This document shows, in pieces, positions 5,789-62,687 of a stretch of 64,000 nucleotides of DNA. The stretch spans positions 105,237 to 169,236 of the forward strand of contig JAHLKC010000091.1 of assembly GCA_025449115.1 (NCBI GenBank). Direction: 5' to 3'. The position numbers were made by a program, and so were the translations under genes. Positions within the stretch are counted from its first letter, which is position 1, and the number at the start of each line of letters is the position of its first letter. The DNA comes from Chytridium lagenaria. Lineage: Eukaryota; Chytridiomycota; Chytridiomycetes; Chytridiales; Chytridiaceae. The notes beneath the pieces were generated by a model. It made no database searches and was not told the DNA's origin. It was given only the letters and a program-made list of their open reading frames with translations.

Positions 5789-6911
5789 GCGATTTGAGTA
5801 TGCATGTCCTCAGCATCTCCGTAATACACTTGCTCTCCAAAAAACTTCGTGTCTTTTTACTTTTGGTGTTTGTTTCCAGTGATCTGAAGGAAGGCCCGTC
5901 ATTAGTACTGCGGATGCTTTCGGGACCGTTAAGTCGTAATGGAATCTGACGGATATAGCTTCACTTTACATGTCCAGAGCAAAGGGAAACCACGACCCCT
6001 ACAGTCACCGTTCGGCAACTAGACTTAAACCCGCGAAGAATATCTCAAGGAAGTACCTGAACGAGCCAGTGTCGATAATAAGTCATTAATACGAGATTCC
6101 AACAAGAATCCAAGAAAACACGAATTCCACGAACTTTCATAAAACTCTTTTAAAATATGTGTATACATATGTAGAATATTCTTATTGACGGAAAGAACCA
6201 GTTACTCGCGGGATATTATGATGATTAAGGAAGGAACTTGCTGCTCGGGTACGTACAATGATAGTTAATTGCCGGTCAGAGGAAGCGAGAACTTAGGCTA
6301 GGCCGATATTTTTATACTCTCTTTTGTAACTAGTAACGATGAAGTTAATCGATCGGTTAATTGATCTGGTACTCACTGACTGCCCGAATGAGAACGAGAT
6401 GGTGGGTCTGCAGTTTTGGTTAAACGATTGTTATCAGTGACTTGACACGCGACATTTCATAACGTAATGATTGACTGTGGGGGTCCGGTACAAGGATGTC
6501 CTTAAAGAATATATTTCCACACTCCTTAGCGACACTCCTTAGCAAACATTAAACGCTTAATGCAGGTCCATTTTGTATGCACGATATTAACATTTTTTTA
6601 AAGCACACACAAGTGGGTCTGCCTATGGAAGCACAATAAAGTAACCCTCTCCAATAACCCAGTCCTTCATCATCACTTTCTTTCTACCCTACCTATACCA
6701 CTCTCTACAAAGCATTAACCTATACTGATGCGTTAACAGAGGCGGCGACGACGACGACCCCGTTACTGGCAAACCATGTCGTCGATAGTCCTAGTCAATG
6801 TTGCTTTTAAACTCATTAAAATAAAAGAATACAATAAAGTGACAGCAATGTCTTATGCGGAGCATGTAAACTAACAAATTTTGATTACACCAAACGAGAT
6901 GTCTCTCTCCT
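5789..6911. other. Gene-free stretch between P1 and acyltransferase A
   Basis: About 1.1 kb of AT-leaning sequence without conserved coding, tRNA or repeat signal. It holds the 3' UTRs of two converging genes. A short duplicated motif (ACACTCCTTAGC) lies near 6519-6540. Nothing else seen. Confidence 0.4.
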
Positions 6912-22645: not shown

Positions 22646-22848
22646 GAGCATTACCTATGAGTATTGAGTATCTACCTATTGTAGGTATCATCTATCTACC
22701 CTGTATATCTACCTACTACTAGGTATATACCTAGCTCTATATTCCATCAATGAAAACACAGCCCCTCTCTGATATATGATTAATTCATTTTTAATAAAAT
22801 AAATATTTAAATATCTACTTGCGCTCACTTGCTACCTACGTCTCTGTC
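22646..22848. other. AT-rich spacer with palindromic TACCTA motifs
   Basis: Contains TACCTATTGTAGGTA (inverted repeat) and the perfect palindrome CTAGGTATATACCTAG near 22720-22735, amid repeated CTACCTA words. It directly precedes the first vWA gene and may be part of its promoter. Confidence 0.5.
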
Positions 22849-24389
22849 ATGGGCCTTGCTTCGAAAATAAAAAAGAGTCCTCCTCCTCCTCTCCAGCAGC
22901 AACCATCTCAAAACATGATTTCTGTTCCTTACTCTGCTCCCCCTCCTCATTCATCATCATCTTCTTCTTCTACAACCTACATTGTCCCTCAACAATCCAT
23001 CCCAGGTCCTTCTGGACATCCTGACCCTTACGCTCGCATCGGCGTGCCAGGACAGCAAACTCAACAATACGGCACGCTTCCCAACCCCGTTCGAAGCGCA
23101 ACCGCAATCAAAACATCCAACGACTATGGTCAGGCCGCTCCCGTTCAACGTGCATCCACCCTCCCCACCGGAAACGCTTATGACGCTCCCCCAGCTTACG
23201 CAGGCGCAGGGGCTCCCCCGCCCAACAAATCCCAACACTACGCTCCTCCACCCGGCGCTCCCCCTCCTCAAGGTGGACCCTCATACCAACCCCCCAACCA
23301 ATCCTACGCTCCACCCGGCGCTCCCCCTCCAGGCCCCAACCCAGGCGGTTACTACGCGGCCCCGTCCCAACCGCCTCCTGCAGCTCAACCCGCAGGTGGT
23401 GCAGTAGACCAAGCAACGTTTGCGCAACAATACGATATTCTCAATCGTCATCTCACACGTATTGTCAATGAGAATCAACTTCAAGGGTTCTATCCACCCC
23501 AAAAGCTGGATCAGGTGGTGAGGAGGGTGGCCGCGGTGAACTTTAATGTATTGTCAACGTTTTGGACCATTCCGAGGGAGATTGCCTTTGATTTGAGTGC
23601 CCTTGCGCTTTATGACGTGGTTTTCTTTTGTGATGATAGTGGGAGTATGAGGATTGAAGAGCGCGGAGAGAGGATTGATGATTTAAAGTAACTTTTTTTA
23701 TTCTTCTTTCATTCTTTATGTAGACTGTGATGATTCTTTAAAAATTTGTTTTGCCGCTAGGTTTTTATTAGTATGCAAAGGTATCTTTTGTTAACCCCCT
23801 TTTTTTCTCAAGGTTGATTCTCGAGAGAATAGCCGAGGTCGCTCTCCAGATGGACGACGACGGTATCGCCGTTCGTTTCATGAACTCTCCCATCACTGCC
23901 GACAACGTCCGCTCAGGCGCTCAAGTCAATTCCCTTGTCGATAGCGTCAACTTTAATGGCCTCACCCCTCTCGGCACCCAACTCCAACGCAAAGTCATTG
24001 AACCCTGGGTTCTCGAACCCCTCCGTCGTCGCACGCTCACCAAGCCCGTTCTCGTCATTATCATCACCGACGGTGAACCTGTAGGAGAGGATCGCAACAC
24101 ATTTAAACGCGTTGTGCTTGACACCAAGACGCAGATGGCTGCGATGGGGTACCCTGCTTCTGCAGTGGCGTTTACTGTCGCGCAATGTGGAAAAGATTTG
24201 GGAGCGCAAAGGTTTTTGGCGGAATTGGATAACGATCCTGGGGTTGGAGGGATGATTGATTGTGTGAGTTATTTTGAATTGGAGGCGGAGGAGTATGCCA
24301 AAAAGGGGGTGGATTTGACGCCGGATTTGTTTTTGGTCAAGTTGTGTATTGGAGGGATTGATAAGAGTTATGACGAGCAGGATGAGTGA
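22849..24389 (+). CDS. Pro-rich von Willebrand factor A domain protein, copy 1
   Basis: Two exons (22849-23690 and about 23813-24389) give about 470 residues. Residues 1-190 are Pro/Gln/Ser-rich with PPGAPPP repeats and probably disordered. A helical segment follows (ATFAQQYDILNRHLTRIVNE), then a vWA domain with a full MIDAS: DDSGS, the Thr of GLTPLGTQL and ITDGEP. It starts MGLASKIKK, a possible Gly2 lipid-attachment site. No signal peptide, so probably cytoplasmic and metal-dependent in partner binding. The family is an uncharacterised fungal vWA group. It is the upstream member of a tandem pair and is intact. Confidence 0.88.
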
Positions 24390-24901
24390 TTTTGTTGCAA
24401 TTTTGTTTTGCCTTTTTTTTTTTTTTTTTTTAGTGTGATGGATATTTCGGCTTTTGTTGATGTATAGTTACATAGCTCTTTTTTTTTTCTTTTTCTAATG
24501 TATGCAAACCACTGTTATTCTTACTTTTACTGGCGTTGCCTTTTTCCTCTGCTTGGTGCTGTCCGTCGTTTTTCTTTTCTTGCGTGTCATCATGTACCTA
24601 ATCCCACCTCTGAGCTTATTAGCCTATCGTGTTTTCCCATCCCTGAAGTTGTTTTACAAACCACTTGAGGGGTTCTGCTAATGCTACATGCAACCACCGT
24701 TTATCCTCTGACGCATTCACCCAAACTTTTTGAAACGTGAAATGAATTCTTGAAGAGTGTGCGTATCATCTCGTGCGCCCAAAAACAAAAAGTCGTTGTA
24801 ACGCATTCAAGTGTGGCGGGTCACCTGTGTTTTTTCGCCGAGTCACCAAGTTTGTCGATTGAAAATCATTACACCCATTCACGCACTCTCACCTGCATCA
24901 T
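24390..24901. other. Spacer between the two vWA genes
   Basis: About 510 bp, T-rich 3' UTR of copy 1 followed by the promoter of copy 2. No other signal. Confidence 0.4.
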
Positions 24902-26651
24902 ATGGGTCTTGCAGGGAAATTGAAAGCGAGTCTCCCTCCTTCCCACCAACAACAACCCCAACCACAACAACAAGCTCCAATGCCATCCGTCCCATACACC
25001 CGCCACCCCCCTCCAACCCCAACCCCACCCAATACATTTTCCAAGAACCCTTCCCCACCACCTCTGCACCAACACGACGAGCCACAGCAGGTCCATCCTC
25101 CTCTTCTCAAGGCTGGAACGGCTCCCTCACAGACCTCGACGCCCAACGAGCCGCCACCCTCTCCCGCATCACAGCCTTTGACGTTCCACCCGCCTACGCA
25201 CCGGGTCAATCCGCAACCGACACCAAAACCCCCTTCAACCCGTTTGCCGATCCCGTCCCCCAACCCTCGCCGCAGACGATCCCGGATCACACGTTTCAGG
25301 ATCAATATAGGATATTGACGGATCATCTTCATCGGATTGTTTCAGAGAATCAGATTCAAGGGTTTTACCCTGAGGAGAGGTTGAGGAGGGTGGTGGAGAA
25401 AGTGGCTAGGGTGGATTTTTCGTCGATTAGCACGTTTTGGAGGATTCCGACGGAGATTGCGTATGATTTGAGTGCGCTTGCGCTTTATGATGTGGTGTTT
25501 TTTTGTGATGATAGTGGGAGTATGAGGATTGAGGAACGGGGGGAGAGGATTGATGATTTGAAGTAAGTTTTTTTTCTTTTCTTTTCTTTTTTTTTGGTTG
25601 AGGGGGAGGGAGGGGGGGAGGGCGTGGAATACTTTGCTTTTGTGAGATTAGGAGTTTTTTCTATTTGTAGAGTTTAGTTGGGACTTTTTAAGTTTGGTCG
25701 GTCTTGTTTATAGATTTTTTTTAAAGCCCCCTTTTTTAAAGAGTTGGGGGGGGGTAAAGACTGCGATTTAAAGTTGGATTTGGTAAAGGATGGATGTTGG
25801 GAGGGCTATCTTGGTGACGGGTGGTTGACGCGACCCTTTTTTTTTTTAATGCGGGGATATATGGTCATCGACATCGACATGAAGGAAGGATTTGTGGAGA
25901 GAGGCGACGGGGGAGTGGGTGGGTACTGAGCGATACCTCTGCGTTTGGATAAGGGTTTATTTGTGTCCTCCTTTCTCTTTTACGCGTCCCTTTTAGAAAC
26001 GAGGGCTTGATCTTTTTTTTTTTGCCTTTAGTTAAGTGAAGGAGAAATTAACCGCAGTCTTTTGTTGTCAAATAGGTTGATACTTGAGAGAATAGCCGAA
26101 ATCGCGTTCCAACTCGACGACGACGGTGTTTCAGTCCGTTTCATGAACTCCACCGTCTCTGCCGATAATGTCCGAAGCGGGGCTCAAGTCAACGCCCTCG
26201 TCTCCAGCGTCACCTTCAACGGTCTCACCCAAATTGGCACCCAACTCCACCGCAAAGTCCTCGACCCTATGGTTCTCCGACCCCTTCAATCCCGGAGCCT
26301 CACCAAGCCCGTTCTCGTGATCATTATAACGGACGGTGAACCCTGTGGAGAGGATCGTGGGACGCTTCGAAGGGTGATTGTGGAGGCGAAGATGGCGATG
26401 ACGAGGATGGGGTATCCTGGATCTGCTGTTGCGTTTACGATTGCGCAGTGTGGGAAGGATGTGAAGGCGCAGAGGTTTTTGGGGGAGTTGGATGGGGATG
26501 CGGTTGTGGAGGGATGATTGATTGTGTGAGTTATTATGAGTTGGAGGCGGAGGAGTATGAGAGACGTGGAGTGGAGTTGACACCGGAATTGTTTTTGGTC
26601 AAGTTGTGTGTGGGTGGGATTGATAAGAGTTATGATGAGCAGGATGAGTGA
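24902..26651 (+). CDS. Pro-rich von Willebrand factor A domain protein, copy 2
   Basis: The start MGLAGKLKASLPPSHQQQ parallels copy 1. The block ALYDVVFFCDDSGSMRIEER is identical to copy 1, and both genes place an intron at the same codon (IDDLK|LILERIAE). Here the intron is about 500 nt (25562-26074) against about 120 in copy 1. MIDAS residues DDSGS, GLTQIGTQL and ITDGEP are kept. Two base shifts break the frame: one in the C-rich Pro/Thr region (about 25000-25060) and one near 26510, just before GMIDCVSYYELEAEEY. Both resemble homopolymer losses. A recent tandem duplicate with a diverged N-terminal tail; role unknown. Confidence 0.82.
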
Positions 26652-35586: not shown

Positions 35587-36244
35587 CCCACTTTTTTTTT
35601 CAATTTACATATCCTCACATATCACTAAACCAAAAACAATAGTTGTTTGCTTCATCCCCTTACCCTTTTTTTTTTTTTACATATTCCCTTCTTTTTGCAT
35701 TTGGTGGTCTATGAACAAGCTTTTGCACGGTATCTATCATCTTCTGAAGTGTTTTTTTTTAGTGTTGGGAACATTTATGGGTTTTGTTTGTGTGTGGTTC
35801 TTTTGTCTGCTGTTCCTTTTTTTTTTTGGTTGCGGGATGATTGAATAAGCATGGAAATTAAAGGATAAAAACCTCATGAAGTCATATTACTAGCTTTGTG
35901 CGGAGTGCGGATTTAACCTTGTTTTCTTTTGAAAATATTTGGAGGAGTCTACTTACCTATGTAGGTAGTTGTGTGTGGGTTTCTAGTTTTGTCACGAGAT
36001 TCGTGGTTTTGTGGAGACGCCGTAAATATTGCCCGCTGCAGGTCTGGGCGTCCACGATGTGATTCACAAACCCACAATTTCCAAATATTATTTACAAGGA
36101 TTCAGAGGCTTTGCAACACTTTCGGTTTTTGATTCCGTCAGCAGCTCTAAAAACGTGTAACTTGAAACCACAGACACATAAAAAGCATCGCTTGGTTCCT
36201 CCATCATCAGAAAAAAACCAAACAACAAGAACGTCTAAAAAACC
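35587..36244. other. Intergenic region
   Basis: About 660 bp of 3' UTR and promoter sequence. A TACCTATGTAGGTA inverted repeat lies near 35955, similar to the motif at 22677. No gene. Confidence 0.4.
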
Positions 36245-37756
36245 ATGGCAGAACGACGAACCACCGAGATCAAGGGTTTTGAGCGCTTCGTCAGCATGTC
36301 AGAGGGATGCATGTGGATCGCTCATGCACTTCGCATCACAGCCCCATCTCAAGTCGTGATCTCAAACATTGTGCCGGCGTTTCGAGGTGTATTCAACAAG
36401 CATCCAAGAATGAGAGCTCGCATGTCAAAGGAGAAGAACGAACCATTCATTGCTGTCATTCCACCTGGTGATATGACGGATGAAGACGTCAAGCCTCTTG
36501 TTACCGTTGTTGAAGGGAAAGACGGGGAGGATTTGATTTCTGGCATTCAACCCATCATTCAAGAAACTTGCAGCAAGCCAGTGAACAGAACAACGGATTC
36601 TCCTTACAAACTTACTGTTTACGTTGGTGAGAAATCGGAAACAGGCTTGATGGATAAACTTGTCCTCATGTTGTTTTCTGACCACTACATGAGCGACGGG
36701 TTCAGTGGTCTCATTGTCCTCAACGACCTTTTGAGAAACTTGGCTTCCTCGCATCAAACGTCATTCTGGATCAAGAAGAACTCCCTCTCCGCCCTTCGCT
36801 ATTCGACCAACAATGGCCCAACACTTTATTCAATCGTATCATCACTCCCCTCATCATATCAGTCACAGCCCCAATTCTTCGCGCAGAAGTGAAAAACCAC
36901 ACCCCCGTCCTTCCCATTCGTCAAGACCAAAAACCCTTCAAGCTCCCACTCCCACTCAACTTAACTCAACTTCATCTCTTCACCGGCCATCCCGACAACC
37001 TTGTTGCAGGTTTAAAGCGTTGCAAGGAAGAAAAGGTCACGCTACATGGTGCCGTTCTTGCTTGTGTATTGATGAGCTTTGAAAAGGCAAAAGGCGTGAC
37101 GCCAAAGGGGAAGAGGTTTAAGATGAAGGTGGACAGTGATTTTAATATGCGAAATCGCGTCAAGAAGCCGTTTCCTGAGGCTTCAGTTGGGTTCAATGTG
37201 GGGATTGTTAATCTTCAAAAGCTTGATACAAAGGGTGTTGATTTTAATGAGAAGTTTTGGGATGTTGCAAGGTGCGTGAAGAAGCAAATGGTAGGTTGCA
37301 TTCTATTCATTTGTACTTTATGGGCTTTATCTGACCTATCGTTTTTATTAGACGACGGAAATCACAAGCTTCAATACTGTAGCCGCGCCTCTCTACATGA
37401 ACCACAAGCTTAACTCCTCAATCAAAAAGGTTGAAGTCGAAGTTCCCCATAGTCTTCTTGGCGACGTGAACATTTCCAACCTTGGGCGTTACCCCTTTGA
37501 GACTGTCCATACTCTCCCTCGTGGCGAGATTCGAGTTGAGGGTCTGCATTTCTCAAACAGCATTCCAAATATGGGACCTGGTGTGGATCTTGTTTGTATC
37601 AAGTGTGGGACAGTTGGATTATGCGTTTTCGACGAGGTTTGTGGACGAGGAAGGGAAGAAGGTTTTTGAATATCTTTGTAAATGCATTGAGGCGGTGGGG
37701 AGTATATTACGAAGGAGGAAACGATGCGTGGAGCGTCAGAGCGGATATTTTCTTAG
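36245..37756 (+). CDS. HxxxD-type acyltransferase, copy B, reading frame disrupted
   Basis: Paralogue of the gene at 6912-8487 along its whole length: EIKGFERFVSMSEGCMWIAH, FNKHPRMRARMS, the identical catalytic block SDHYMSDGFSG, LRPSLFDQ, PVLPIRQDQKPF, VTLHGAVLACVLMSF, DFNMRNRVKKPF and a C-terminal exon with SNLGRYPFETVHTLP. The intron is at the same place (about 37291-37352). Three shifts interrupt it: about 36745-36765, about 37590 (before FVSSVGQLDYAF) and about 37695, after which ETMRGASERIFS ends at 37756. The copy lacks the N-terminal ~19 residues of copy A. Because other conserved genes here show the same kind of shift, this may be intact in reality; it could equally be a young pseudogene. 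Confidence 0.7.
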
Positions 37757-39019
37757 TCTTTTTTGGTGTAAATAAAATCACGCATTAATCATCATCAGTT
37801 TAATACTCTTCGCCATTCAACTTTGCTTGCTGCATATTACATCTTTTTTTTCGAATCTAACATTGCATCTTTTTCAATTTCACCTTTGTGAAACTACTAC
37901 AGAAGGAGTGTAGGCCAGATGAGTATGTGATATCTTTGACTAATACACGGAACGAAATTAACTTAACATGTGTAATGATTCTTGTCTCTTCCATATCTAG
38001 AGACAGTGCAAAAGGGTATAAGATTAGCGTATGCATCCTTGCTGTTAATATCACGCTTCAGAAGTCTTATTCTTGTAGACTGCATATAATAATTGTTTTG
38101 AATCCTAACCACCTTAGCTGCCTACCAAAGTGGATACCGATATTTTCGTCAAATTCGTCCGAACTTTAGCCAGCTTTGGCTACGTTTGGTAGCACTGTAT
38201 CATACAAATGAAGACTTGCAAACACTTAATGTAGGTAGAAAGGTAACTGAGGGGAAAGAATCTGGAGGATAAGGATGGCTTGTTGGACCCACGTTTCAGC
38301 CGTCCAGTCCAAGTGGCGCCATCCGAGATAACCAGTACCCTGTCAAACTCCAGCAGAACACCTAAATAGCCGTCATGATATCTCAGGGAGAACGGCAATG
38401 GCAAGCAGGACGCTGAAGGTTGTTGAATGATCTGGAATTTCAAATTTCAATTTCTGTGAAACTTGTTATCTACCGTATGAGTTTCTGCACATATCGGTGA
38501 GTTTCACGTTGACTTCGTAATTGTAAAACGTTTGAAAAGCGTTAAGAGTAAAAGAATGCTCTTCACCTTGCCGCCCAAGTGTTGACCCTTCCTTTGCGGC
38601 AAAACTTAACTCATTAACCAACTAACTTTCTACAGTAGGCACCTTTGTGCAAATAGGACCTGTTGAGAGTTTTTAGGAAAGTGGTTTTCGAGGTTGCGAA
38701 TGAATGAGGAGATGTAAAGTTGAGTACACGTTAGAAATGTTTTCTACTTTTTTCCAGCTTTAACGGAGAGGGCTCTCGTTTCGGTTATCACTAAGTTTTT
38801 TTCATTAGCTCTGGCAACAAGGTTTTATGATATCCTCTGTCGCTGAATGCCCGGCCGTTATTTTGACTCAATATCACGGGCAAGTGCTCCACTAAACCCG
38901 TCGTCGTAGTAGAAAGGTTGCGTCAATTTAAAAACGCTATATCTAATTTCAATCAAAATATTGTTTTAACGCCTTGGGAGTCTCCTCTGTTGTAGGCAAC
39001 TGAATTAAATCCATTTTCT

Positions 39020-39908: not shown

Positions 39909-40300
39909 CAATCCGACTCCACGCAACCCCATCACCTTTTTATCTAAACACACAAAATAAACAAAAATGACACGAATTCTTAGGGCCTTTTACGTTATGA
40001 ATTCATGAAATGTCCAATACCCTCGGACAATGGGGTTTTTTGTGGAAAAAAAGTGGCTCAGAATTTGTCCTCGTTTTTTATCCCTACGGAAACCTGCGCG
40101 CAAACTGGTGGAAGAAACACGATGCCGCCAAAAAAGAAGGGGAGCGTCAAAGCCCAGGGTGGACGTAAGCCTTTTTATCGTCATTCCTTAAACATGCCCA
40201 AGTCTCGTTCTTCCACTTCTATTTCCTCATCCACTTTTCTTTGTTAGAGGTGCCGAGTGAGCCCAACAGTCACGTCATCAACGAGGATGCTTGTGTTCAA
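39909..40300 (+). repeat. Dispersed duplicate, copy 2, with a ~215-bp extra block
   Basis: Matches copy 1 up to CCTCGGACAAT (about 40031) and again from GAGCCCAACAGTCACG (about 40258). In between, absent from copy 1, is a small exon-like segment: ATG at 40121 (MPPKKKGSVKAQGG), donor GGAC|GTAAGC and acceptor TTTGTTAG at about 40246. It may be the 5' end of an old gene cut off by the array. Confidence 0.6.
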
Positions 40301-43300
40301 AGCTAGTCATCCTCTCGTTCTCGGCGTCGTTACGATCTCAGTGATTCGTTTGATTCCCTAAAATGGTCCAATTCGAAATTTCAAGTAGTCAGTTCCATAA
40401 GCAGATGATTCAGAGAAAAGAAGGAAACTACTTACCGGGCCGAAGCCCGTGCCTTCCTAACACGTGAGTGCCAATAGATATAACATCCCGCAGTGATAAC
40501 AACCATCAATTGTAATCTCAATGAATCCCGCGATCCGCCATCGTCTTCGTGTGGTTGTTCTAGTCGCGTTAAGATTTCGTTTGACTTGCAGTTACCTCGA
40601 ATCTTACTGCACAAAATGTCAAATAGCCAGCTCAATTTCAAGATAAGGAAAGTGATCAAAAACGTATATAAAAAAGATAATTAACGGCCGAAGCCCCTCA
40701 AATCCTTCATGCAAGCGAGTACCAGAAAATATTCGAGCAAACTTAATCGTTTCGCAATAATAACATTCATAATAGTTTCTTGAAATTTCGTTACATCCGT
40801 CATCGAATCGTCGTCTCGTTCGCGGTCTCGGTGGAACGTTAAACTCGTCAAGGACCTCGAATCGTCCTTCGCGATATCTCAAGTAGTCAGTTCAATAGCA
40901 GTAAAAGAAGAAATTCAAAGGAGAGGAAGAAAAATACTTACGGGCCGAAGCCCCTCACTTCCTTTAAGTAGGTAAGTACAAGAAAATACCGAATAACTTG
41001 ATTGTTCCCGCAAAACGAACTTCCCATAGATAATAGCTTCTTGAAATTTCGGTACATCCCTCGTCGAATCGTCGTCTCGTTCGCGGTCTCAGCGGCACGG
41101 TGACCTTGCCATGGACCTCGTATCGTCCTTCACGATATTTCAGTAGTCGGCCCAATAGGAGTAAAAGAAGGATTTCAAAGGAGAGGAAGAAATTACCTAC
41201 GGGGCCGAAGCTTTAAGCAAGTGATTATGGGAAAAAACGGAGTAACCTGATCGTTCCTGGAATACTAACTTCCCATAAATAATTGTTTCTTGAAAATGGA
41301 TCCATCGTCGAAAAGTTGTCTCGTTCGCGGTCTCGGTGGCACGGTGGCCCGGCTGGACTCACCGTCGATCTTAGATATTCTTTTACGGACTTTTAGTAGT
41401 CAGCTCAGTTTTCAGTAATAGCAGGAATATAAAGGAGAGTAACGAAAACACTTACCGGGCGGGAGCCTCCGTTTTTAAGTAGCTAGTGAGTGCTGGAAAA
41501 AACCGAGTAACTTGAACGTTCCCGCAATAATATTAATAATAGTTTCTCGAAACCTCGTGCGGGCCGAGTGGAATCGTCGTCTCTTCCTCGTCTCGGCAGC
41601 ATGGTCACATCGTTGGACTTGCCGTGGACTTTTTATCGTCCTTCACGATAATTTAGGAGTCAGTTCACTTAGCAGAAAAGAAGGATTTCAAAGGGAGGAA
41701 TGAAAACAATTACCGGGCCGTAGCCCATCATTTCCTCTAAGCAGCCGGGGAGCACCGTAATATAATCAAGAAACCTTAAGCGCACCTGCACCGATAACAT
41801 CACATACACTATAGTTGCTTGAAAGGTCGTGCGGTTTCTGGTCGAATCATCGTCCCTTTGCGGTCTCGGTGACATAAGACCTTGATGGATTCGCCGTGCC
41901 CTTAAAACATCCTGCAATATATCTCACGAAGTGATTTCAGTTATCAAAAGAAAGAAATTCAAAGTAGAGGGAGTAAATACTTACCGTGCTGGAGCGCTTC
42001 CTTTGAGGAGCCCATGAGTACCAGGATAAACTCGAGTAACTTGCGCGTACCCGCAATAATAGCATTCCATAAATAATAGCTTCTGGAAACCTCGTGAAGT
42101 GTTTCGCAGCATCGTCTTCTCTTTCGCGGTCTTTTCGGTTTGGTCACCTCGTCCCATTCGCCACGGACTTCGAATCGTTCTGCACAATATCTTAAGTAGT
42201 CAGTTCAATTATGAGTAAAAGAGGGGATATACAGGAGAGAAAAGAAAATACTTACAGGGCCGCAGCCCCTCGCTTCTTTTGAGCAAGTGAGTATCAGAAG
42301 AAACCGAGTTATCTCATGGTTCCTGCACTTCTAACTTCCCATAATAAGAGTCTCTTGCAATTTCGGTACATCCCTCGTCGACTCGTCGTGTCGTTCGCGG
42401 TCTCGCTCTCATGGTGTCCTCGTTGAACTCGCCATGGACCTCGACTCGTCTTTTACGATATTTGAAGTATTCAACTCAATCAATAAGCACTCAAAGGAGA
42501 GGAAAGAAAATACTTACCGGGCCACAGCCCTCGCTTTCTTCAAACAAGGAAGTACCAGAAAATACCGAGTACCTTGATCGTTCCCGCAAAACGAACTTCC
42601 CATAGATAATAGTTTCTTGAAACTGCGGTACATCCCTCGTCGTCCTGTTGGAGGTCTCGGTAGTATGGTGACCTCGTCGGACTTGCCGTGGATCTAATTT
42701 TCCATTATGATATTTTAAGTGGTCAGTTCCGTTTTCAATTATAGCAGGCAGGAATATAAAGGAGAGGAACGAAAGCACTTACCGGTCGAGAGCCCCTCGC
42801 TTTTTTTTTCAAGCAGCCAGTAAGTACTGGAAAACGACCGAGTATGCAATTACATTAATAGCCATGGACCTTTTATCGTCCTTCACCATATGTCAAGTAG
42901 TCAGTCAATTAGGAGTAAACGAAGGAATTCAAAGAATAGGAAGGAAAATACTTACCGGGCCGAAGCCCCTCGCTTCCTTCAAGCAGCCATAGAGTACTAG
43001 AAAAACCCGAGTAACTTACTCGTTCTCACAATCATAATAAAATTAGTTTCTCGGAACCTCGTTCAGTGCCTCGTCGAATCGTCGTCTCTTTCGCGGTCGT
43101 GTCAGCATGGTCACCTCGTCAGACTCGCCATGGACCTCGAATCGTTCTCGGTAGATCCCTCGTCGAATCGTCGAATCTTTCGCGGTCTTGGCGGCACGGT
43201 GACTTTGTTGGACTCGCCGTGGACCTCGTATCGTCATTCACCATATGTCAAGTAGTCAGTCCAATTAGGAGTAAACGAAGGAATTTTCAGTTATAGCAGG

Positions 43301-45400
43301 CAGGAATATAAAGGAGAGGAACGAAAACACTTACCGGGCGAGAGCCCCTCGCTTTTTTCAAGCAGCCAGTGAGCACTGGAAAAGGACCGACTTACATTAA
43401 TAAAAGTTGTGTCTCGTCAAATCGTCGCCTCTTTCGTGGTCTCGGTGGCACGGTGACCTCGTTGGACTCGCCGCGGTCCTCGTATCGTCCTTCACGACAT
43501 GTCAAGTAGTCAGTTCAAATTAGGAGTAAACAAGGGAATTCAAAGGAGAGTAAGGAAAATACTTACCGGGCCGAAGCCCCTCGCTATCTTCAATTAACTG
43601 AGCACAAGAAAAAAACCGAGTACCTTGATCGTTCCCGCAACATCAACTTCCCTTAAATAATAATTTCTTGATATTTTGGTAATTCCCTCGTCGAGTCGTC
43701 ATCGTTCGCGATCTCGGAAAATGATGACCTCGTGAGACTCGCCGTGAATCTTGAATTGCCCTTTACACAGTTCAGTTATCAGTAATTGAAGGAATCTAAA
43801 GGAAAGTAACGAAAATACTTACCCGGAATCCCCTTGCTTCCTTCAAGCAAGTAAGTACCAGAAAACCCCGAGTAATTTGACTGCTCTCGCAGTAATAATA
43901 TCCATAAGCTTAAGATTTCGGTAGATCCCTGGTCGAATCGACGTCGCCTGTTTCGTGGTCTCGGTGGCATGGTGACCTCGTTGGCTCGCCGCGGTCCTCG
44001 TATCGTCCTTCACGACATGTCAAGTAGTCAGTTCAAATTAGGAGTAAACAAGGGAATTCAAAGGAGAGTAAGGAAAATACTTACCGGGCCGAAGCCCCTC
44101 GCTTTCTTCAATTAACTGAGTACAAGAAAAAAACCGAGTACCTTGATCGTTCCCGCAACATTAACTTCCCTTAAATAATAGTTTCTTGATATTTTCGTAA
44201 ATCCCTCGTCGAGTCGTCATCGTTCGCGATCTCGGACAATGATGACCTCGTGAGACTCGCCGTGAATCTTGAATTGCCCTTTACACAGTTCAGTTATCAG
44301 TAATTGAAGGAATCTAAAGGAAAGTAACGAAAATACTTACCCGGAATCCCCTTGCTTCCTTCAAGCAATAAGTACCAGAAAACCCCGAGTAACTTGACTC
44401 CTCTCGCAGTAATAATATCCCATAAACTTAAAATTTCGGTAGATCCCTCGTCGAATCGTCGAATCTTTCGCGGTCTTGGCGGCACGGTGACTTCGTTGGA
44501 CTCGCCTTGAACTTTGAATCCGTCACGATAGTCAATTTAGTCAGTTCAATCAGGATTAAATGAAGGAATTTAAAGTAGAGGAGGGAAAATACTTACCGGG
44601 CCAAAGCCCTCGCTTCCTTCAAGCACGTGAGTACCAAAGAAAGAGTAACTTGATCGTAACCGCAATAACAACATCACATAAATAATAGTTTCTTGAAATT
44701 ATCGGTGGATCCCTCGACGAATCGTCGTCTCGTTCGCGGTCTCAGTCGGCACGGTGACCTCGTTAGACTCGCCATGGACATCGATTCATTCCACACAATG
44801 TCTCAAGAAGTCAGTTCAATGAATAAGCACAACAGAAGGAATGAAAATGAGAGGAATGAAAATACTTACCGGGCCGAAGCCCCTCACTTCCTTTAAGCAA
44901 GTAAGTACAAGAAAATACCGAATAACCTGAATGTTCCCGCAAAACGAACTTCCCATAGATAATAGCTTATTGAAATTTCGGTACATCCCTCGTCGAATCG
45001 TCGTCTCGTTCGCGGTCTCATCGGCACGGTGACCTCGTCGGACTCGCCTGGGATCTCAAATCGTCCTGCACAATATCTCAAGTAGTCAGTTCAACTACGG
45101 TAAACGAAGGAATTCAAAGGAGAGGAAGAAAAATACTTACTGGGCCAAAGCCCTTCACTTCCTTTAAGCAAGTAAGTACAAGAAAATACCGAATAACTTG
45201 ATTTTTCCCGCAAAACGAACTTCCCATAAATAATAGCTTCTTGATATTTCGGTAGATCCATCGTCAAATCGTCGTCTCGTTCGCCCGTCTCGGTGGCATG
45301 TTGGCCTCGCCGTGGCACTTGAATCGCCCTATACGGAATTTTAATAGTCAATAAAGTCGCCTCAAAGAAAGTTACCAAAGACGGGATGTATAATACTTGC
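40300..45400 (-). repeat. Tandem array of ~19 exon-intron-like units (~261 bp each)
   Basis: On the minus strand each unit contains CTTCGGCCCG|GTAAGTATTTTC, a near-perfect splice donor; then about 65 nt that include a branch-like ACTGAC and an acceptor (TACTTGAG or, about 11 nt on, GTGAAG); then 196-207 nt ending at the next donor. Donors lie at about 40433, 40676, 40933, 41192, 41449, 41705, 41973, 42247, 42510, 42776, 42948, 43325, 43557, 43816, 44078, 44333, 44590, 44863 and 45133. Spacing is mostly 243-274, with one short (172) and one long (377) unit. The exon-like part can encode RTRRRFDEGCTEIS in one frame and YSVFSGTYLLEGSEGLRP in another; no single frame is open in all units. A weaker donor-like GTGAGTACC occurs on the plus strand. 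Either amplified exons of the gene at 45401 or a satellite derived from them. Confidence 0.8.
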
Positions 45401-45880
45401 CGGGTCAAAGTCCTCGCTTCCTGTGACCGGCCATCGACCACCACGGTATGTACCCGAGTAATTGCCTCTGTCCATCACTCGTGCTATCTTGGATGCTGTG
45501 TTGGAATCTCGTAGTAATAACTTGTCATCGACACTGACTCGTGTAGATGGTTCCTTGAAATATACGGGGCAGGTTAAAGTCTGGGTGCGAAGCGGTGACT
45601 GCAGGCTTATGTTGCTGTCATGGTCATCATATATCATTAAAAAGTAGAGTCTTTGCGCTGAGCATGTTACAAAGCCTTCTCCGTCAAATCCCATAACGAC
45701 TCCCGAAAGCGTCCTTCCTTCTCCTCGGACTAAAATGTCCAATACATGATTTATCCTGACAATCTTCAAATATCGTGTGACAATTCCGTTATTCCAAAAA
45801 TAGCTATTATCCTTATCCCTTCCATCAAAAATAGCCTCTGGAAACGACCCCAATACAATAATCATGTTGCTCCCTTCCAT
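45401..45880 (-). CDS. Open exon at the head of the array, function unknown
   Basis: An open stretch of about 156 codons (MIIVLGSFPEAIFDGRDK, ILVRGEGRTLSGVVMGFDGE, LTCPVYFKEPSTRVSVDDKL) ends with RGNYSGTYRGGRWPVTGSED, which corresponds to the end of the array unit (SVFSGTYLLEGSEGLRP), and is followed by a GC-type donor, CCCG|GCAAGTATT. So the first array unit is this exon's 3' part. Upstream on the same strand, spliceable blocks occur (THGGVKRELTKTRQQVSRL near 45960-46030; NNLRLKVRKPQLDHKL near 46200-46260; possibly a signal-like start near 46700), so the gene may begin near 46.7 kb. No known domain is recognised. Confidence 0.5.
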
Positions 45881-48800
45881 TCAACCTTCCATGACTTCAC
45901 CAACAAAGAGACACGAAGATACGGTCGTATATAAAGAAGAACACCACATACCTCAATTTGCTTCCGTCAGCCTTGAGACTTGTTGTCGTGTTTTGGTGAG
46001 TTCCCTCTTAACGCCTCCGTGAGTCTACCAATGTCATTAACTTAGGATATATAAGATTGATATCTAGGATATATGAAGTCGATACTTACCACATGTGATA
46101 CCTGCTACCCTACTTGATGCAATGCTTCATACGACCTACGCTCTTGGGGCCGCGAATCTTGAAATATCTATCTCGCTGGTAGTTGCCAGGTATGAACCAT
46201 TTGGCATTCCTTGAGCTTGTGGTCGAGTTGAGGTTTGCGCACTTTGAGCCTGAGATTGTTCATCAGTTCTACGAGAGACAACCTATTGAAAAATATTAAG
46301 TTAGTGATGAGTTTGAAACAATAATCTCGCTCGAGGACAGGAGGCAACACCGTGTGAGATCCATCCCGTAATGGTGGTGAGTGTTAGGTAGACGATTTGC
46401 AGAGCAAGGTTTGATGGCTTGCTAAAAATAGTTTCCTTGGAAGCGAAGGGGCAGGATAGCAGTTTTATTACCAGCAACTTCTACGAAGAGCAGATGGGCG
46501 AAAATTCAAAAACAACGAAACGGATACGAGAAAAACGGAATGGACTCACTGGATTACAACAGCCTTCAATTGGTATACCGAATGTTACCTGCTCCAACTC
46601 CACCCAAAGACTCTCTACAATACGACTCTGGCGTTGGTGATAGGTAAAGGAGAGGGGTGGTGATGAGGTAAGAAAGAGGATGTGAAGGATGATGGGCAGA
46701 AAGCAAAACAAAATCAGAATTTCTCTTTTGACTCATTTGTTGTTTTTCTCGATTCCTTGCAATTTTCTCCTCCTTCTATTCTTTTGCTTAATTTCACTTT
46801 GTTTTTCTTTAATCCACTCAATTTATGCTTATTTTCCCATCAATTTATGTCTTCCGATGATTGTTTGGGGTGCAGAGCGATGAAATCGCCTTTGTTCTGA
46901 TGTTTGGTTGAAAATGAACTTTTCGTTCGTTTGGGGGTAGGTCGAGGATTTTTACAATGGACAATAGCAGAACGAGGTTTATGTGAGAGGATATGGATAG
47001 GGAGGAATAGTAAAAGGTAGAGGTGACAGGTGGGGTATCTTATTGGCTGTGTAAAGAAATAGTGAGACGGCGTAGGCCTAACGTCGACGACTCCTAAACG
47101 CTCCGCGTTGCAACCGCACTCATGAGAAATCGAGAGAGGATTGTTGCATATAAGGATGATGGAGAAGTTTGAGGATGAGAGAGAAGGAGGTGGGTTGGGG
47201 TTGCGAAGAGTTAAAGGGAACGAGAAGGGATTCCAGTATAGCCATCTGGACTCAAACTGCAAGCACGCCCATATTTTTTCATCCCAATCTTTCCTCCTAA
47301 CCCTCTACGCACTTCATTTCTAGATATACCTTAATGGTTCTGTATGATGCTTGCTTCTCGAGATGGAGGCATTATTACAAGTGCGTATGAACGTAGTTCT
47401 CAAAAAATTTTAGACTTGGTAATTTCTTAATTAATGAGAGGCATACAGATATCCTTTTTGTGGGAAAATGACGCACAGCATTATGACAGTCAGCGGGAGA
47501 CCAATGCAACCGCCATCTTCGCTGTTTCAGCATTGTTTATGTGGGCGGCCTGAATATTCTGCTTCTGATCAACAGTTCCATAAACTCGGTTAAAAATGGA
47601 ATGGATACAGGGCAAATATTGCAATGGTTCGAGATTCTGAACGTCATACCACACATCAGATATTGTCTCTAGAAGTGGTAGACCTTCTTATCTACATGAG
47701 CCTATTAGTGCAATTGGAGCGAATAGCAAAACGGTGTGGGATACGAGCCTTTCAAAGGTTAATAGTACACAAAATAATATGGAGCTACTTGAAAACTTGA
47801 GCTCTGATCTAAGGAATCTGCCAAAACAAATAATGTGACTTGGCATTGCATTAGACTTATTGTGAGTAAGTAACAGAAAAGGCAGCACAGTACAATTGCA
47901 AGCTAAAACGTTTCAAAAGAAAATTGTGAGTCAGTTTATGAGCGCAGTACATTCCACACTCTCCGTCTTCCTTCAATTCATGCAGTATACCACTAAATAG
48001 TTACATATGTATTCATCACGTCCTGCTGTGGTGGTTTCAATGAAAGCGATGATCAATTATAAATAGGCAATTCGAACATATTTGAAATAACTCTTTATTA
48101 AAGTTGTATAATTTTTCTTATCTTACGTTTAGCCTAACGCGTTTTTTTTTCGATTTGAACCTCTCCCAAACGACCCTCCACTTTGTCATCCTCTCGTCCC
48201 TTTTGCATCACACGCTAATCCCTCGATAATTTGACCACCACACGTTGTTTCCTCAATACTTTCCCATAAATAACTCTTCCTATCTAATTTCCTCTACGAT
48301 CCCTATACAGAAAGAAGGTTATAAATCAAATCTGACACCTTTCTGGTATTTACTTTCTAGATCAACAACGCGAGTTGTTATATATTTTAATTGACTGGTT
48401 TTTCCATCACTTTTTGCAAGACTGTCGTAGGGCGCATTCCAAGTCAGGTTCCAACGAATATTGCCAATCTCAACGTTTTGTTTCCCTTATCTGGGTTAAC
48501 CCAATTGCCTATTCCGATTTTACACCCACATTTCCATGTTTGGGCTCTAGATACATAACTTGTTGCTCAAAGTTGTTGCAAAACCTTTCTTTAAAAAGCG
48601 TAGGGCGAAGTTGTTGATTTGAAATCGCGTGAAGAACAGGGGTTCTCCATTGATGTATTTATTGTTATAAGCATATATTTCTTTATACTCTTTTCGAGTA
48701 TTCTCATACGAATCCATCATCCATCCATCCATCCATCCATCCATCGTACTGCATAGGTAGGTAGTTGTAAATATCATTTTCCGCCAGCAAGGAGAGGCTT

Positions 48801-59087: not shown

Positions 59088-60159
59088 ATGTCACACACAC
59101 CAGAACTCCCTCAGCAAGTCTCCACCAGTGACATCGCCTCGGCCTTTGCAAGCTTCAGCAGCAGATAGCCCAGCTCCAAGAACGCCTCAGCGCCTCAGAA
59201 GCCTTGGTCGCCGCCGCTCGTCGCCTCTCACCAGAAGCCAGAGAACTTCCTGAATTCAAGATCACGTCACGCAAGCCACCATCCTTCTCTGGGGATCTTC
59301 GCAAGAAACCAGCTCACGAGGCCCAAGCAGCAATTGATGAATACCTCCACCAAGCCGCTGAAGACGCCAGGCTGTACGGCTTCCTTGGAGATGATGAAGA
59401 ACCTCAGTTCAAGAACCACAAGACCTACGTCGACTGGATCTCCACAGGCCTCTCAGGACTCGCCCTCACTCAGTGGAGAAGAATCTCTCCAGACGTCCGT
59501 CACCACATGGGCTGGAGAGAGTACTGTCAGTGGATTCGCGACTCCTTGCCTCATCACTCACCCTTCAGCAAGCCATTGAATCCCTCGACAAGATAGAGCA
59601 AAAGGGTGCCGCCACTCTTTACTCTCAGCAGTTCAACGAGCTCGTCGCCGCCATTGAAGGATCAGGCATTGTCTACCCAGAAGTCATCCTCTGCTTCAAG
59701 TACCGCCGCGGACTCAAGGCCATCCTCAGGACCAATGAAGATCTTTTCGACATTCAAGACGACCTCCAGAGACTCCAGCGTGCTGCAGAGCGCTGGATGA
59801 CTTCCACTGGAGAGAAGGAAACCACCAACGCCGCAGCAACCAGAATGATAACCGTCACAAGCCACGCGACCATAATTTTCGTTCCCAAAGGCAAGAAAAG
59901 CAACAGCACAACAACGGTCCCACTCCCATGGAAATCGACAACACCACAGCAACCCGGTCCAAGCTCACCGATCAAGAAAAGGCCATCTACCGTGCAAATG
60001 GTTGGTGTACCTACTGCCGCTCTCACGAACATCGCTATGAGCAATGCAACGCCCCAGGAATCCGTCGGAAACAAGTCAAGGTCAACAACACGCAAGTCTC
60101 GGAAACGACAGCACCGACGGTCGGCAACAGTAAGAGGCAATCTGCCTCTCAAACCTGAT
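59088..60159 (+). CDS. Retrotransposon Gag with CCHC zinc knuckle
   Basis: Starts at ATG 59088 (MSHTPELPQQVSTSD). A coiled coil (IAQLQERLSASEALVAAARR) is followed by a capsid-like region (FKITSRKPPSFSGDLRK, YVDWISTGLSGLALTQW, FKYRRGLKAILRTNEDLF), then MEID and a zinc knuckle CTYCRSHEHRYEQC (C-x2-C-x4-H-x4-C). The frame is interrupted near 59152 (a missing C before LQQQIAQLQ), about 59545 and about 59793, each by one base, as in host genes of the window. Gag would package the element RNA in virus-like particles. Confidence 0.82.
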
Positions 60160-62687
60160 CAAGACACGGCGTTGCGCGCGCTCCCTCGGGAGAGTCTTCA
60201 CCACCTCCCGAGGTCGAGCGCGCTACACTTGACAAGAGTTCCGTGGAGGCTCTGTCAAGACGGTTCCATCCACATCCAAACCTCAAAGGCCTCATCAAGA
60301 CGTCGATCGCATCCTCAAGATCTACCACGTCGAGAAACAAGACGCCAAGAGTGACCTTCTCGTCATTCAAGGCACCATCAACGGACGGCACGCCAAAGTT
60401 CTCATAGATGGAGGAGCCACTCACTCCTTTGTCAAGGACTCTCTCGCCTTCGCCATCAGCAAACCATCCAACCAAGAAGTTTTCGACATCAAGCTCGCCG
60501 CTTCAACACCAAGAGCAGTCAAAGGACGCCTCTTTCGCGACCTGGAACTCAACATTGACCTCTACGTCACCAAGCAAGAATTCATCTCTGCACCAATCGT
60601 GTACGACGTCATCCTCGGCAAGGATTGGTTGACACGGGTCAACCCAAGGATAGACTGGACCACCAACACAGTCACCTTCGCAACAACCGCTGGATCTGTA
60701 GAGAACAGATTCCCGTCACTGTGGAACACATTTCGGCAAAGACATTCAAGCGCCTCGCAAGGTTCCCCAACATCAGACTTGGACTCATCCACCTCAAGGA
60801 CATCCTCTCGGACAGCTTAGCCTCAAGCAACTCAGCACCTTCCTGCAATTCAGCTTCCTCTGGCCATCAAGTCCCCACTCATGTCCCTGCGCACGCTCCG
60901 GTTTTGAAGACCACCGCTGACGCCAACGAGAAAGACGCAAGAATTCTGGCTTCGCTTCCTGACAACATCAAGAACATGGTCAAGCAATACCCTGCAGTAT
61001 TCTCAGAGTACAAAGGAATCCCGCCTTCAAGACCATCAGACCACCGCATCGACCTTGAAGATCCTTCCGCCAAGCCACCACATAGGCCAATCTACCCTCT
61101 CTCGGAAGAAGAACTCCAGACCCTCAAGAAAGAACTTGAATTCCTCCTGGAAAACGGTCGCATCAAGCCTTCGGTCTCAGCATACGGCGCTCCAATCTTC
61201 TACATCGCCCAAGCAGGCAAGCTCAGACTCGTGATTGACTACCGCGCCCTCAACAAGAACACAGTCAAGAACCGCACGGCTCTTCCCAACATCACGGAAA
61301 TCCTCGATAGGTTACGCAAGGCCAAGTTCTTCTCCAAGCTTGACCTGGCATCCGGTTACCACCAGATCCGCATTCGCCCAGAAGATACCGACAAAACCGC
61401 CTTCAGAACGAAATACGGCCATTTTGAATGGGTCGTCATGCCCTTCGGTCTCGCAAACGCCCCAGCCACGTTCCAGTCCATGGTCAACAGCATCTTTCAC
61501 GACTATGTTGATGAGTTTCTCATCGCATACATGGACGACATTCTCATCTTCTCAGAAACCGCCGAAGAACATGAAGAACACCTCCGCAAGGTTTTGGCTC
61601 GACTTCAAGAACACCAGCTTCATTGTCGCCTTCACAAGTGTTCATTTTTCGCCTCTCAAGTCGAGTATCTCGGTTTTCACGTCGCCAACGGACACCTGGA
61701 AGTTTTACCGTCAAGAACCCAAGCCATTCATGATTTCGAAACGCCCAAGTCTTGGACAGAACTCCGCTCCTTCATAGGTCTCGCCAACACCATTCACCGG
61801 TTCATAGCCCATCACGCAAGCCTGCTCGCGCCTCTCACTGATCTCCTTCGTGGCGCCGGCAACAAGAAACATCCTGCACCTTTCAAGTGGACACCTGAAA
61901 ATCAAGCCGCCTTCGAGAAAGTCAAGCAAGCCCTCGTCTCACCTCAAGTACTCAGTCTTTTCGACCCCTCCAAGCCGGTTCACCTCTACACAGACTGGTC
62001 AGAATCCGCCGTTGGAAGTTACGTCGCTCAGCCAGACGAAAATAATCATGAAGCACCAATCGCCTACGCCTCAAGAAAGTGCAACAGCAGCGAACGCAAG
62101 TACCACCCCTACCTCGGTGAAATCCTTGCCCTCGTGGAAGCCTTCCGCACGCATCGGCATTACCTAATCGGCAGACAAGTCAAAGTCTTCACGGACCACA
62201 GGTCTCTTCAGTACATCCTGGACCAGCCCAAGCTCCGCCCTGTGCACCACCGCTGGCTCGCAGATCTCCTCGCCCAAGATTTCGTCATTGAGTGGACTCC
62301 AGGCAACTGGAACACTATCGCCGACGCTCTTTCGCGACGCCCTCACTCCAAAGATGCAGCAACAGACCCTCACATCAGCCTCAACGCCATCACCACCATC
62401 ACCAACGACATCCTGGACGCCATCAAAGAAGCCTTACCAGAAGATCCCGAATTCAAGGAACTTGAACAGTACTTGGACGACACCATCACCCCAAAAGAAA
62501 AAGAAAATCCTCCGCCGGTACCCAAGGAACGTCGCACTCAGATCAACCGTTACCTTCTCAGTGGAGGACTACTGTACTACAAAGCCGCCAACCAGTACCG
62601 CCTCTTTGTCCCTGCCGCCATTCGCCAAAGACTCCTCAATCTCGCCCATGACGACGGACCAAGTATTCACGGTAACTGGGAACTGTG
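60160..62687 (+). CDS. Retrotransposon Pol: protease, reverse transcriptase, RNase H, truncated integrase
   Basis: The protease region has LIDGGATHSFVKDSLA (an Asp-protease motif with Gly in place of the usual Ser/Thr) at about 60395-60445 and ILGKDWL. The RT is intact: KLRLVIDYRALN, FFSKLDLASGYHQI, GLANAPATFQ and YMDDILIFS (YMDD at about 61530). The RNase H region reads HLYTDWSESAVGSYVAQ, ERKYHPYLGEILALVEAF and FTDHRSLQYIL. The integrase begins with the HHCC-type segment (RLLNLAHDDGPSIHG) and then stops at 62687. From about 60740 the RT/RNase H frame is open to the end; the protease part needs base-shift corrections. Without an integrase core this copy cannot integrate on its own. Confidence 0.88.

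What the first reader, a model, noticed from the sequence alone, without database searches (positions are those of the whole stretch)
40300..45444. Array of ~19 exon-intron-like units, a possible tandem-exon gene
Seen: units of ~261 bp, each with a strong donor (CCCG|GTAAGTATTTTC), a branch-like ACTGAC and an acceptor, in one orientation, so each unit looks like one exon plus one short intron of the same size class as real introns here. The exon-like part is 196 or 207 nt depending on which acceptor is used. Inference: the array could be (a) alternative exons chosen one at a time, as in tandem mutually exclusive exons, (b) exons spliced in series into a repeat protein, or (c) a satellite grown from an exon. 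Against (b): no single frame is open in every unit. If the downstream acceptor is used, exon length is not a multiple of three, so joining two exons shifts frame, which would fit one-at-a-time use.
Basis: partly seen in the sequence, partly recalled or inferred. Interest (0 to 1): 0.85.

Follow-up and report, generated by a model that had tools for sequence, protein, structure and literature searches.

The report
Tandem-exon noncoding RNA gene, chytrid
A chytrid fungus carries what looks like a gene made of about twenty near-copies of one small exon and one small intron that seems to code for no protein, yet its splice signals have been kept in two separately evolving copies of the gene.

Summary
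On the minus strand, window 45400 to 40435, 20 donor sites define 19 units (median about 259 bp), each with a U1-matching donor and, mostly, a pyrimidine tract, an ACTGAC-type branch site and an acceptor. The genome is most likely Chytridium lagenaria (Chytridiomycota). A second, more diverged array of the same unit lies on another contig (C58, about 25 donors). The ~2.2 kb upstream of the two arrays is also alignable and collinear, so a whole gene seems duplicated, not just a satellite. Between arrays, conservation peaks at exon end plus donor and at the branch; the pyrimidine tract keeps composition but hardly sequence; most of the exon body drifts. No clear coding signal: exon lengths mixed modulo 3, 20 of 40 called exons with stops in all frames, 11 of 49 indels multiples of 3. 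Exons fold no better than shuffles and match no Rfam family. Best reading: a noncoding RNA gene whose tandem exons are spliced in series; splicing itself, or spliceosome binding, appears to be what selection keeps. Mutually exclusive exons and a repeat protein are not supported; a plain satellite is disfavoured. No RNA data could be examined: transcription and splicing are inferred.

The parts
40358..45400 (-). Array of 20 donor-headed exon/intron units (19 donor-to-donor intervals), read 45400 -> 40358
   Evidence: donor profile, 20 donors; sequence read
45066..45140 (-). Example intron, 75 nt: GTAAGTATTTTT...pyrimidine tract...GTTGAACTGACTACTTGAGATATTGTGCAG
44870..45065 (-). Example exon, 196 nt, ending ...GGGGCTTCGGCCCG before the next donor at 44869
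40358..40435 (-). Last intron of the array (donor 40435, acceptor TTTTAG ending at 40358)
45401..45880 (-). Stretch before the first donor; 160 codons open from an ATG, but no Pfam match, no protein relative found, and the paralogous C58 stretch aligns with frame-breaking gaps: best read as noncoding 5' exon
45725..47339 (-). Upstream region alignable and collinear with that of the C58 array (promoter plus 5' part, inferred)
   Evidence: four collinear local blocks of six hits; global alignment score 689 against 20 shuffles with maximum 89; the coarser genome searches did not pair the two regions
47093..47108 (-). ACGCGGAGCGTTTAGG, core of an inverted repeat (AACGC-GGA-GCGTT) shared with the C58 upstream region; exactly 2 matches to ACGCGGAGCGTTTNGG in 41.9 Mb, these two
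5912..6331 (+). Diverged extra copy of the piece just before and across the first donor (45714-45370), without an array
   Evidence: 79% over 127 bp, E 1e-24, plus two flanking blocks

Best explanation
The array is the body of a noncoding RNA gene transcribed leftwards (minus strand) from a promoter near 47.1 kb. About twenty tandem copies of one exon plus one ~75-nt intron are spliced in series, each donor to the next acceptor, giving a long RNA built of ~190-nt repeats rich in ACGAG/GACGA. Units multiply and are lost by unequal exchange; selection removes units or variants that spoil splicing, so the U1 and branch/U2 sites stay while most of the exon body drifts. The likely output is therefore an RNA that loads many splicing and exon-binding proteins (a multivalent RNA-protein platform), not a peptide and not a structured small RNA. 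Shown from sequence: array, splice signals, their excess conservation, second array with alignable upstream region, absence of a clear coding or structure signal. Inferred: transcription, promoter, serial splicing, protein loading and any cellular role.
For: Second array with the same grammar on C58. 16 C58 units against the C91 consensus: exon end 0.88-0.94, donor 0.84, branch 0.82-0.89, against 0.51-0.80 for all other ten-column windows and 0.38-0.63 for shuffles. Control for choice of units: units picked by the branch profile alone (16 in C91, 26 in C58) have an intact GTAAGT 22-75 nt upstream in 12 and 20 cases, against a mean 4% (maximum 12% and 15%) in shifted windows; their best windows are donor 0.86, branch 0.83 (C91, median 0.61) and branch 0.71, donor 0.70 (C58, median 0.515). 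The stretch between donor and branch is 81% and 80% pyrimidine (exons 46% and 43%) although its pairwise identity is not far above shuffled, 0.60 and 0.56 against 0.51 and 0.50. Two of the genome's five Rfam U1 matches were read; both start ATACTTACCTGG, the complement of the donor GGTAAGTAT. Upstream regions alignable. Units of the two arrays form separate clades (17 of 18 C91 units in one, all 18 C58 units in another, midpoint root, no support values), so the signals survived in two separately homogenised arrays. No clear coding signal. Exons no more folded than shuffles: mean z +0.28 (18 C91) and +1.06 (22 C58), 40 control windows 0.0.
Against: No RNA reads or cDNA could be examined. The acceptor is the weakest signal: its window is 0.65 between arrays, in C91 10 of 17 are AAG and 3 of 20 donors have none called. 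Within C91 some exon windows (0.67-0.76) are as conserved as the branch (0.69); between arrays two exon windows (TATTTATGGG 0.80, GAACGAGACG 0.78) come close to the branch; in C58 one exon window (ACGAGATTCC 0.68) nearly equals donor and branch: exons are not free of constraint. The segment comparison anchors donor and branch on the motif and takes exon segments at fixed distances, which favours the motifs. dN/dS is 0.69 in one frame. In C58 the longest ORF of the in-silico spliced array is 128 aa against a shuffle 95th percentile of 122. The genome searches with each upstream region did not list the other one.
Confidence: 0.62

Rival explanations
1. Transcribed or untranscribed satellite that grew from an exon-intron piece; splice-like motifs are inherited, without present function.
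For: Multi-unit duplications in C58; decayed donors and acceptors in some units; exon bodies diverged; acceptor window not raised between arrays.
Against: Unequal conservation at donor and branch in two arrays, pyrimidine composition kept with little sequence identity, upstream region alignable as well.
Confidence: 0.2
2. Intron-bearing noncoding repeat whose poorly spliced introns hold the spliceosome and recruit RNAi or chromatin factors, as proposed for introns of S. pombe centromeric dg/dh RNA.
For: Donor and branch are the best-conserved parts; the genome has Piwi-domain and RdRP-domain matches on 5 contigs each; AAG acceptors next to strong donors in C91 could favour stalled complexes.
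Against: Only two ~5-6 kb arrays were found in 356 contigs, not an obvious centromere family; C58 acceptors are mostly YAG (20 of 24); no small-RNA data.
Confidence: 0.12
3. Mutually exclusive or otherwise alternative coding exons, chosen one at a time after the 45401 donor.
For: 11 of 16 called C91 exon lengths are not multiples of three; 9 of 16 have at least one frame without a stop.
Against: No frame shared by units, no codon-position signal, 11 of 49 indels in multiples of 3, dN/dS 0.69-1.03 over nine frame/region tests; the upstream 160-codon stretch is not conserved as a frame in C58 and has no relative found.
Confidence: 0.03
4. Precursor of many small structured RNAs (snoRNA, miRNA-like hairpins) with the exons or introns as carriers.
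For: Resembles the layout of the mammalian SNORD116 host array.
Against: No Rfam match within the arrays (2 and 1 sub-threshold hits, all outside them); exon folding not better than shuffles; introns 52-89 nt with no conserved core seen beyond splice signals.
Confidence: 0.03

Closest known systems
SNORD116 / IPW-A exon array (Prader-Willi critical region, mammals)
   Same: Tandemly repeated noncoding exons with introns in a long transcript (PMC4742849, passages seen).
   Different: There the introns carry snoRNAs; here introns are 52-89 nt and no snoRNA family matches within the arrays.
Firre lncRNA (mammals)
   Same: Locus-specific repeat (RRD) that overlaps 7 of 13 human and 11 of 23 mouse exons of a noncoding RNA; differs between rodents and primates (PMC4820808, passages seen).
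   Different: As I recall, Firre is not a head-to-tail array of one exon plus one short intron; no relation by sequence was tested; hnRNPU binding is not testable here.
Intron-containing centromeric dg/dh noncoding RNAs and cryptic-intron lncRNAs of fission yeast
   Same: Fungal noncoding RNA in which an intron and splicing factors matter (PMC5322907, passages; PMC7229227, abstract and outline).
   Different: Inefficiently spliced introns, a few per transcript as far as I saw; no array of ~20 matching units.
Gomafu/MIAT lncRNA (vertebrates)
   Same: Noncoding RNA with repeated spliceosome-binding motifs (tandem UACUAAC, SF1) (PMC3116199, abstract and outline).
   Different: There the branch-like motifs sit in an exon; here each motif sits in an intron layout with donor and usually acceptor.
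Dscam-type mutually exclusive exon clusters (recalled, no call)
   Same: Tandem copies of one exon with flanking splice sites.
   Different: Those exons are coding; these show no coding signal.

Membership tests
Spliceosomal intron array | Donor complementary to the organism's U1 | tested here: met
   Two of five Rfam U1 matches read, both begin ATACTTACCTGG; GTAAGT positions match at 91-98% each over 45 listed donors, one of them (C58:65874) misplaced by about 6 nt
Spliceosomal intron array | Branch site and YAG acceptor in each unit | tested here: inconclusive
   Branch-like site (lenient pattern list) after 19 of 20 and 24 of 25 donors; acceptors called for 17 of 20 and 24 of 25, YAG in 7 of 17 and 20 of 24
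Spliceosomal intron array | Splicing seen in RNA | not testable with these tools
Tandem-exon lncRNA (IPW-A / Firre-like layout) | Repeated exons without coding potential | tested here: met
   (one C58 ORF slightly above the shuffle 95th percentile)
Tandem-exon lncRNA (IPW-A / Firre-like layout) | Own promoter and long transcript | tested here: inconclusive
   Upstream 2.2 kb alignable between paralogs; transcript not observed
snoRNA or miRNA host array (SNORD116, C19MC) | Small structured RNA in each unit | tested here: not met
Mutually exclusive coding exons | Coding constraint and shared frame across units | tested here: not met
RNAi-linked intron ncRNA | RNAi machinery in genome | tested here: met
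   Piwi-domain matches on 5 contigs, RdRP-domain matches on 5 contigs; Dicer not searched
RNAi-linked intron ncRNA | siRNAs from the locus, poor splicing | not testable with these tools
   No small-RNA data
Spliced-leader-like donor hairpin | Conserved stem at the donor with compensatory changes | tested here: inconclusive
   20 of 45 pre-donor 13-mers form all four GGGC/GCCC pairs; few alternative pairs. In minimum-energy folds 8 of 20 C91 and 12 of 24 C58 donors are mostly paired to upstream exon, no control run; six donor regions give z -2.3 to +0.3

The most novel reading that the evidence does not exclude
A gene whose product is the act of splicing: a noncoding transcript kept only as a string of about twenty spliceosome-loading sites (strong U1 match, pyrimidine tract, strong branch) separated by largely expendable, unstructured spacer exons, which titrates or concentrates splicing factors, or uses them to mark chromatin or feed RNAi, in an early-diverging fungus.
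Probability: 0.25. Interest if true: 0.82.

Novelty: new variant of a known kind. Interest (0 to 1): 0.6.

Why it matters
Whether splicing can be kept by selection for its own sake, rather than for what the exons encode, is hard to test because introns normally sit in coding genes. Here two separately homogenised arrays keep donor and branch signals while most of their noncoding exon sequence drifts, in one small genome, so the question can be put to RNA-seq and deletion directly. The tandem-exon noncoding genes I know of (recall) are mammalian. A 2025 review of fungal lncRNAs has 0 occurrences of 'chytrid' and 'tandem' only in a reference title (PMC12566771, term search of the text), and the listings (10 of 973 papers; 10 of 10) showed no paper on such an array; this is not proof that none exists.

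Tried and rejected
Coding reading of exons: rejected on codon-position, indel and frame tests. Coding reading of the upstream 160-codon stretch: no Pfam at E 1, no protein relative at E 1, not kept as a frame in C58. A gene model or relative for the array reading frames: a composite of three window frames found nothing at E 10. Donor hairpin or SL-RNA-like sequestering stem: 20 of 44 units in the two arrays fold with the donor mostly paired upstream and 24 do not, few alternative pairs in the GGGC/GCCC stem; left open, not claimed. Small-RNA precursor: no Rfam family, no folding excess. U1-like genes on the plus strand (the donor's complement reads ATACTTACC): Rfam finds no U1 there, while five U1 matches lie elsewhere. 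Relatives in other collections: 0 in viral contigs; 1 exact 20-mer in a clostridial contig, about what chance gives in 257 billion bases (my estimate), not followed. No eukaryote genome other than the window's own could be searched, so relatives in other chytrids are untested. A self-comparison of the C91 array for long near-identical blocks listed none above 88% although two unit pairs look nearly identical by eye and in the tree; I draw nothing from that gap.

Dropped before counts: one search used 16 of 21 C58 intervals (220-300 bp only); one search used 17 of 19 C91 units (225-300 bp); one search used 18 of 19 and 22 of 24 intervals (length limits); the tree used 36 of 40 units (150-305 bp). 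In some searches one C58 donor (65874) is misplaced by about 6 nt; it was left out of the stem count (24 of 25). Acceptors and branches were called by fixed patterns written after looking at the arrays, so those counts are descriptive; one search was added as a check with units picked by the branch profile only. The 16-base upstream pattern was also chosen after seeing the alignment.
Full report
WHAT IS THERE. The reported array is real and lies on the minus strand, reading from window 45400 down to about 40358. A donor profile finds 20 donors and so 19 intervals, of median about 259 bp. A typical intron is 75 nt: GTAAGTATTTTC, a pyrimidine tract, TTGAACTGACTACTTGAG, then CAG or AAG. Introns were called after 17 of 20 donors, 62-89 nt long. 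Introns of two annotated neighbouring genes are of the same class (49, 61 and a doubtful 74 nt). In the 64-kb window GTAAGTATT occurs 12 times on the minus strand, all inside the array, and never on the plus strand.

WHERE. The window ends at base 169,236 of contig C91 in a 41.9-Mb, 356-contig genome. A neighbouring protein matches at 99% a Chytridium lagenaria record whose contig is 169,236 long. C. lagenaria belongs to Chytridiomycota. I take this as the source.

A SECOND ARRAY. The unit finds 18 places in C91 and 3 in contig C58; scans and profiles then show about 25 donors on C58 between about 65.9 and 59.6 kb, with the same grammar but more divergence. The exon-end+donor pattern occurs 22 times in the genome, 12 in C91 and 10 in C58; its backwards control once. 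A 159-base C58 piece finds 11 places in C58 and 1 in C91. Genome searches score only the best candidates, so further weak copies elsewhere are not excluded.

THE UPSTREAM REGION IS SHARED TOO. Comparing the regions upstream of the arrays gives six local hits; four are collinear (E 4e-10 and three at 0.017), two are off the diagonal (0.017 and 0.71). Unrelated stretches of the window reach 0.001 at best, so the weak blocks count only through their order. A global alignment of ~2.2 kb scores 689; 20 shuffles average 62, maximum 89. The 16-base element ACGCGGAGCGTTTNGG occurs exactly twice in the genome, once upstream of each array (chosen after seeing the alignment). The coarser genome searches with each upstream region did not list the other. 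I infer promoter and 5' exon here. The 160-codon open stretch before the first donor aligns to C58 with frame-breaking gaps, has no Pfam match and no protein relative found.

SELECTION ON SPLICING. With 16 C58 units aligned to the C91 consensus, the best-conserved windows are branch (0.89 and 0.82), exon end (0.88, last two columns 0.94) and donor (0.84); the remaining windows are 0.51-0.80, the acceptor window only 0.65; shuffled units give 0.38-0.63. Because those units were cut at donors, I repeated the test with units picked by the branch profile alone: 12 of 16 (C91) and 20 of 26 (C58) have an intact GTAAGT 22-75 nt upstream, against a mean of 4% in shifted windows; the donor is the best window in C91 (0.86, branch 0.83, median 0.61) and level with the branch in C58 (0.70 and 0.71, median 0.515). 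The donor-to-branch stretch has low identity (0.60 and 0.56, shuffled 0.51 and 0.50) but stays 80% pyrimidine in both arrays. Units of the two arrays fall into separate clades (17 of 18 C91; 18 of 18 C58), so each array was homogenised on its own and kept the same signals. Against this: inside C91 some exon windows are as conserved as the branch; exon windows reach 0.80 and 0.78 between arrays and 0.68 in C58; C91 acceptors are often AAG or missing; and the segment comparison is biased towards the motifs it is anchored on.

NO CLEAR CODING SIGNAL. In 17 C91 units substitution rates by exon position modulo 3 are 0.30, 0.28 and 0.32, 11 of 49 indels are multiples of three, and dN/dS is 0.69-1.03 over nine frame/region combinations with many stops. 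Called exons are of all lengths modulo 3 (C91 5/2/9, C58 7/7/10 for remainders 0/1/2), and 7 of 16 plus 13 of 24 have stops in all three frames. The longest ORF of the array spliced in silico is 104 aa in C91 (shuffle 95th percentile 114) and 128 aa in C58 (122).

NO STRUCTURED RNA FOUND. Exon folding z-scores average +0.28 (18 C91 exons) and +1.06 (22 C58 exons), against 0.0 in 40 control windows; C58 exons are, if anything, less folded than shuffles. Rfam gives no hit within either array. The GGGC-UUCG-GCCC hairpin before the donor looks striking, but 25 of 45 copies lack at least one pair and alternative pairs are few. In minimum-energy folds 8 of 20 and 12 of 24 donors are mostly paired to upstream exon, without a control. 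I read the exon end as conserved sequence and leave structure open. Exons are rich in ACGAG (C58: 67 against 15 expected from dinucleotides) and GACGA (C91: 41 against 11), which would suit multivalent protein binding; this is partly shared ancestry of units.

HOW IT MOST LIKELY WORKS. Donor and next acceptor lie one normal intron apart, so series splicing is the default. Two U1 genes read here begin ATACTTACCTGG, so GGTAAGTAT pairs over nine bases. The product would be a repeat RNA that carries many splicing and exon-binding proteins. Why selection wants that is open. Precedents show what such an RNA can do: retained introns of fission-yeast centromeric RNA as platforms for RNAi factors (PMC5322907, passages), lncRNA introns that recruit silencing through Pir2 and splicing factors (PMC7229227, abstract and outline), and branch-site repeats of Gomafu that bind SF1 (PMC3116199, abstract and outline). 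The genome has Piwi- and RdRP-domain matches, so an RNAi link is possible.

COMPARISON. The layout is nearest to the mammalian IPW-A/SNORD116 exon array (PMC4742849, passages) and to Firre's repeated exons (PMC4820808, passages). It looks like a tandem-exon noncoding gene; descent from either was not tested and is not claimed, and no intronic snoRNA was found. Hence a new variant of a known kind.

LIMITS. No RNA data; no other chytrid genome searchable here; branch and acceptor patterns were chosen after looking.

Noticed in passing
window 5912-6331 (+), 6912-8505 (-), 36239-37775 (+), 45370-45714 (-): Looks like an inverted duplication: two condensation-domain-like paralogs (45% identical) each lie beside a copy of the array gene's 5' piece; only the right-hand copy has the array. 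The 127-bp block is still 79% identical, more than I would expect if as old as the protein pair and neutral.
   Followed up: partly
window 5442-5790 (+): Ribosomal protein P1-like gene (named by eye from the translation, no search) close to the diverged 5' copy.
   Followed up: no
C58 about 68.06-68.40 kb (L023:3058-3399): A dispersed repeat with 27 further matches listed in the genome, upstream of the C58 array.
   Followed up: no
window 59132-62770 (+): Gag-pol-like frames of a Ty3/gypsy-type retroelement (by eye).
   Followed up: no
window 22798-24389 and 24802-26598 (+): Two neighbouring paralogs with a von Willebrand A-like domain sharing 'ALYDVVFFCDDSGSMRIEERGERIDDLK' (by eye).
   Followed up: no
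exons of both arrays, e.g. window 44896-44907 (-): A segment TACTYACTTGCT in many exons is complementary to the donor and on the plus strand itself looks like a donor (GTAAGTA).
   Followed up: partly
window 46025-46089 (-): A further donor-like GTAAGTATC with a TAG 65 nt on, in the upstream region of C91; no such donor in the aligned C58 stretch; possible extra 5' intron.
   Followed up: no
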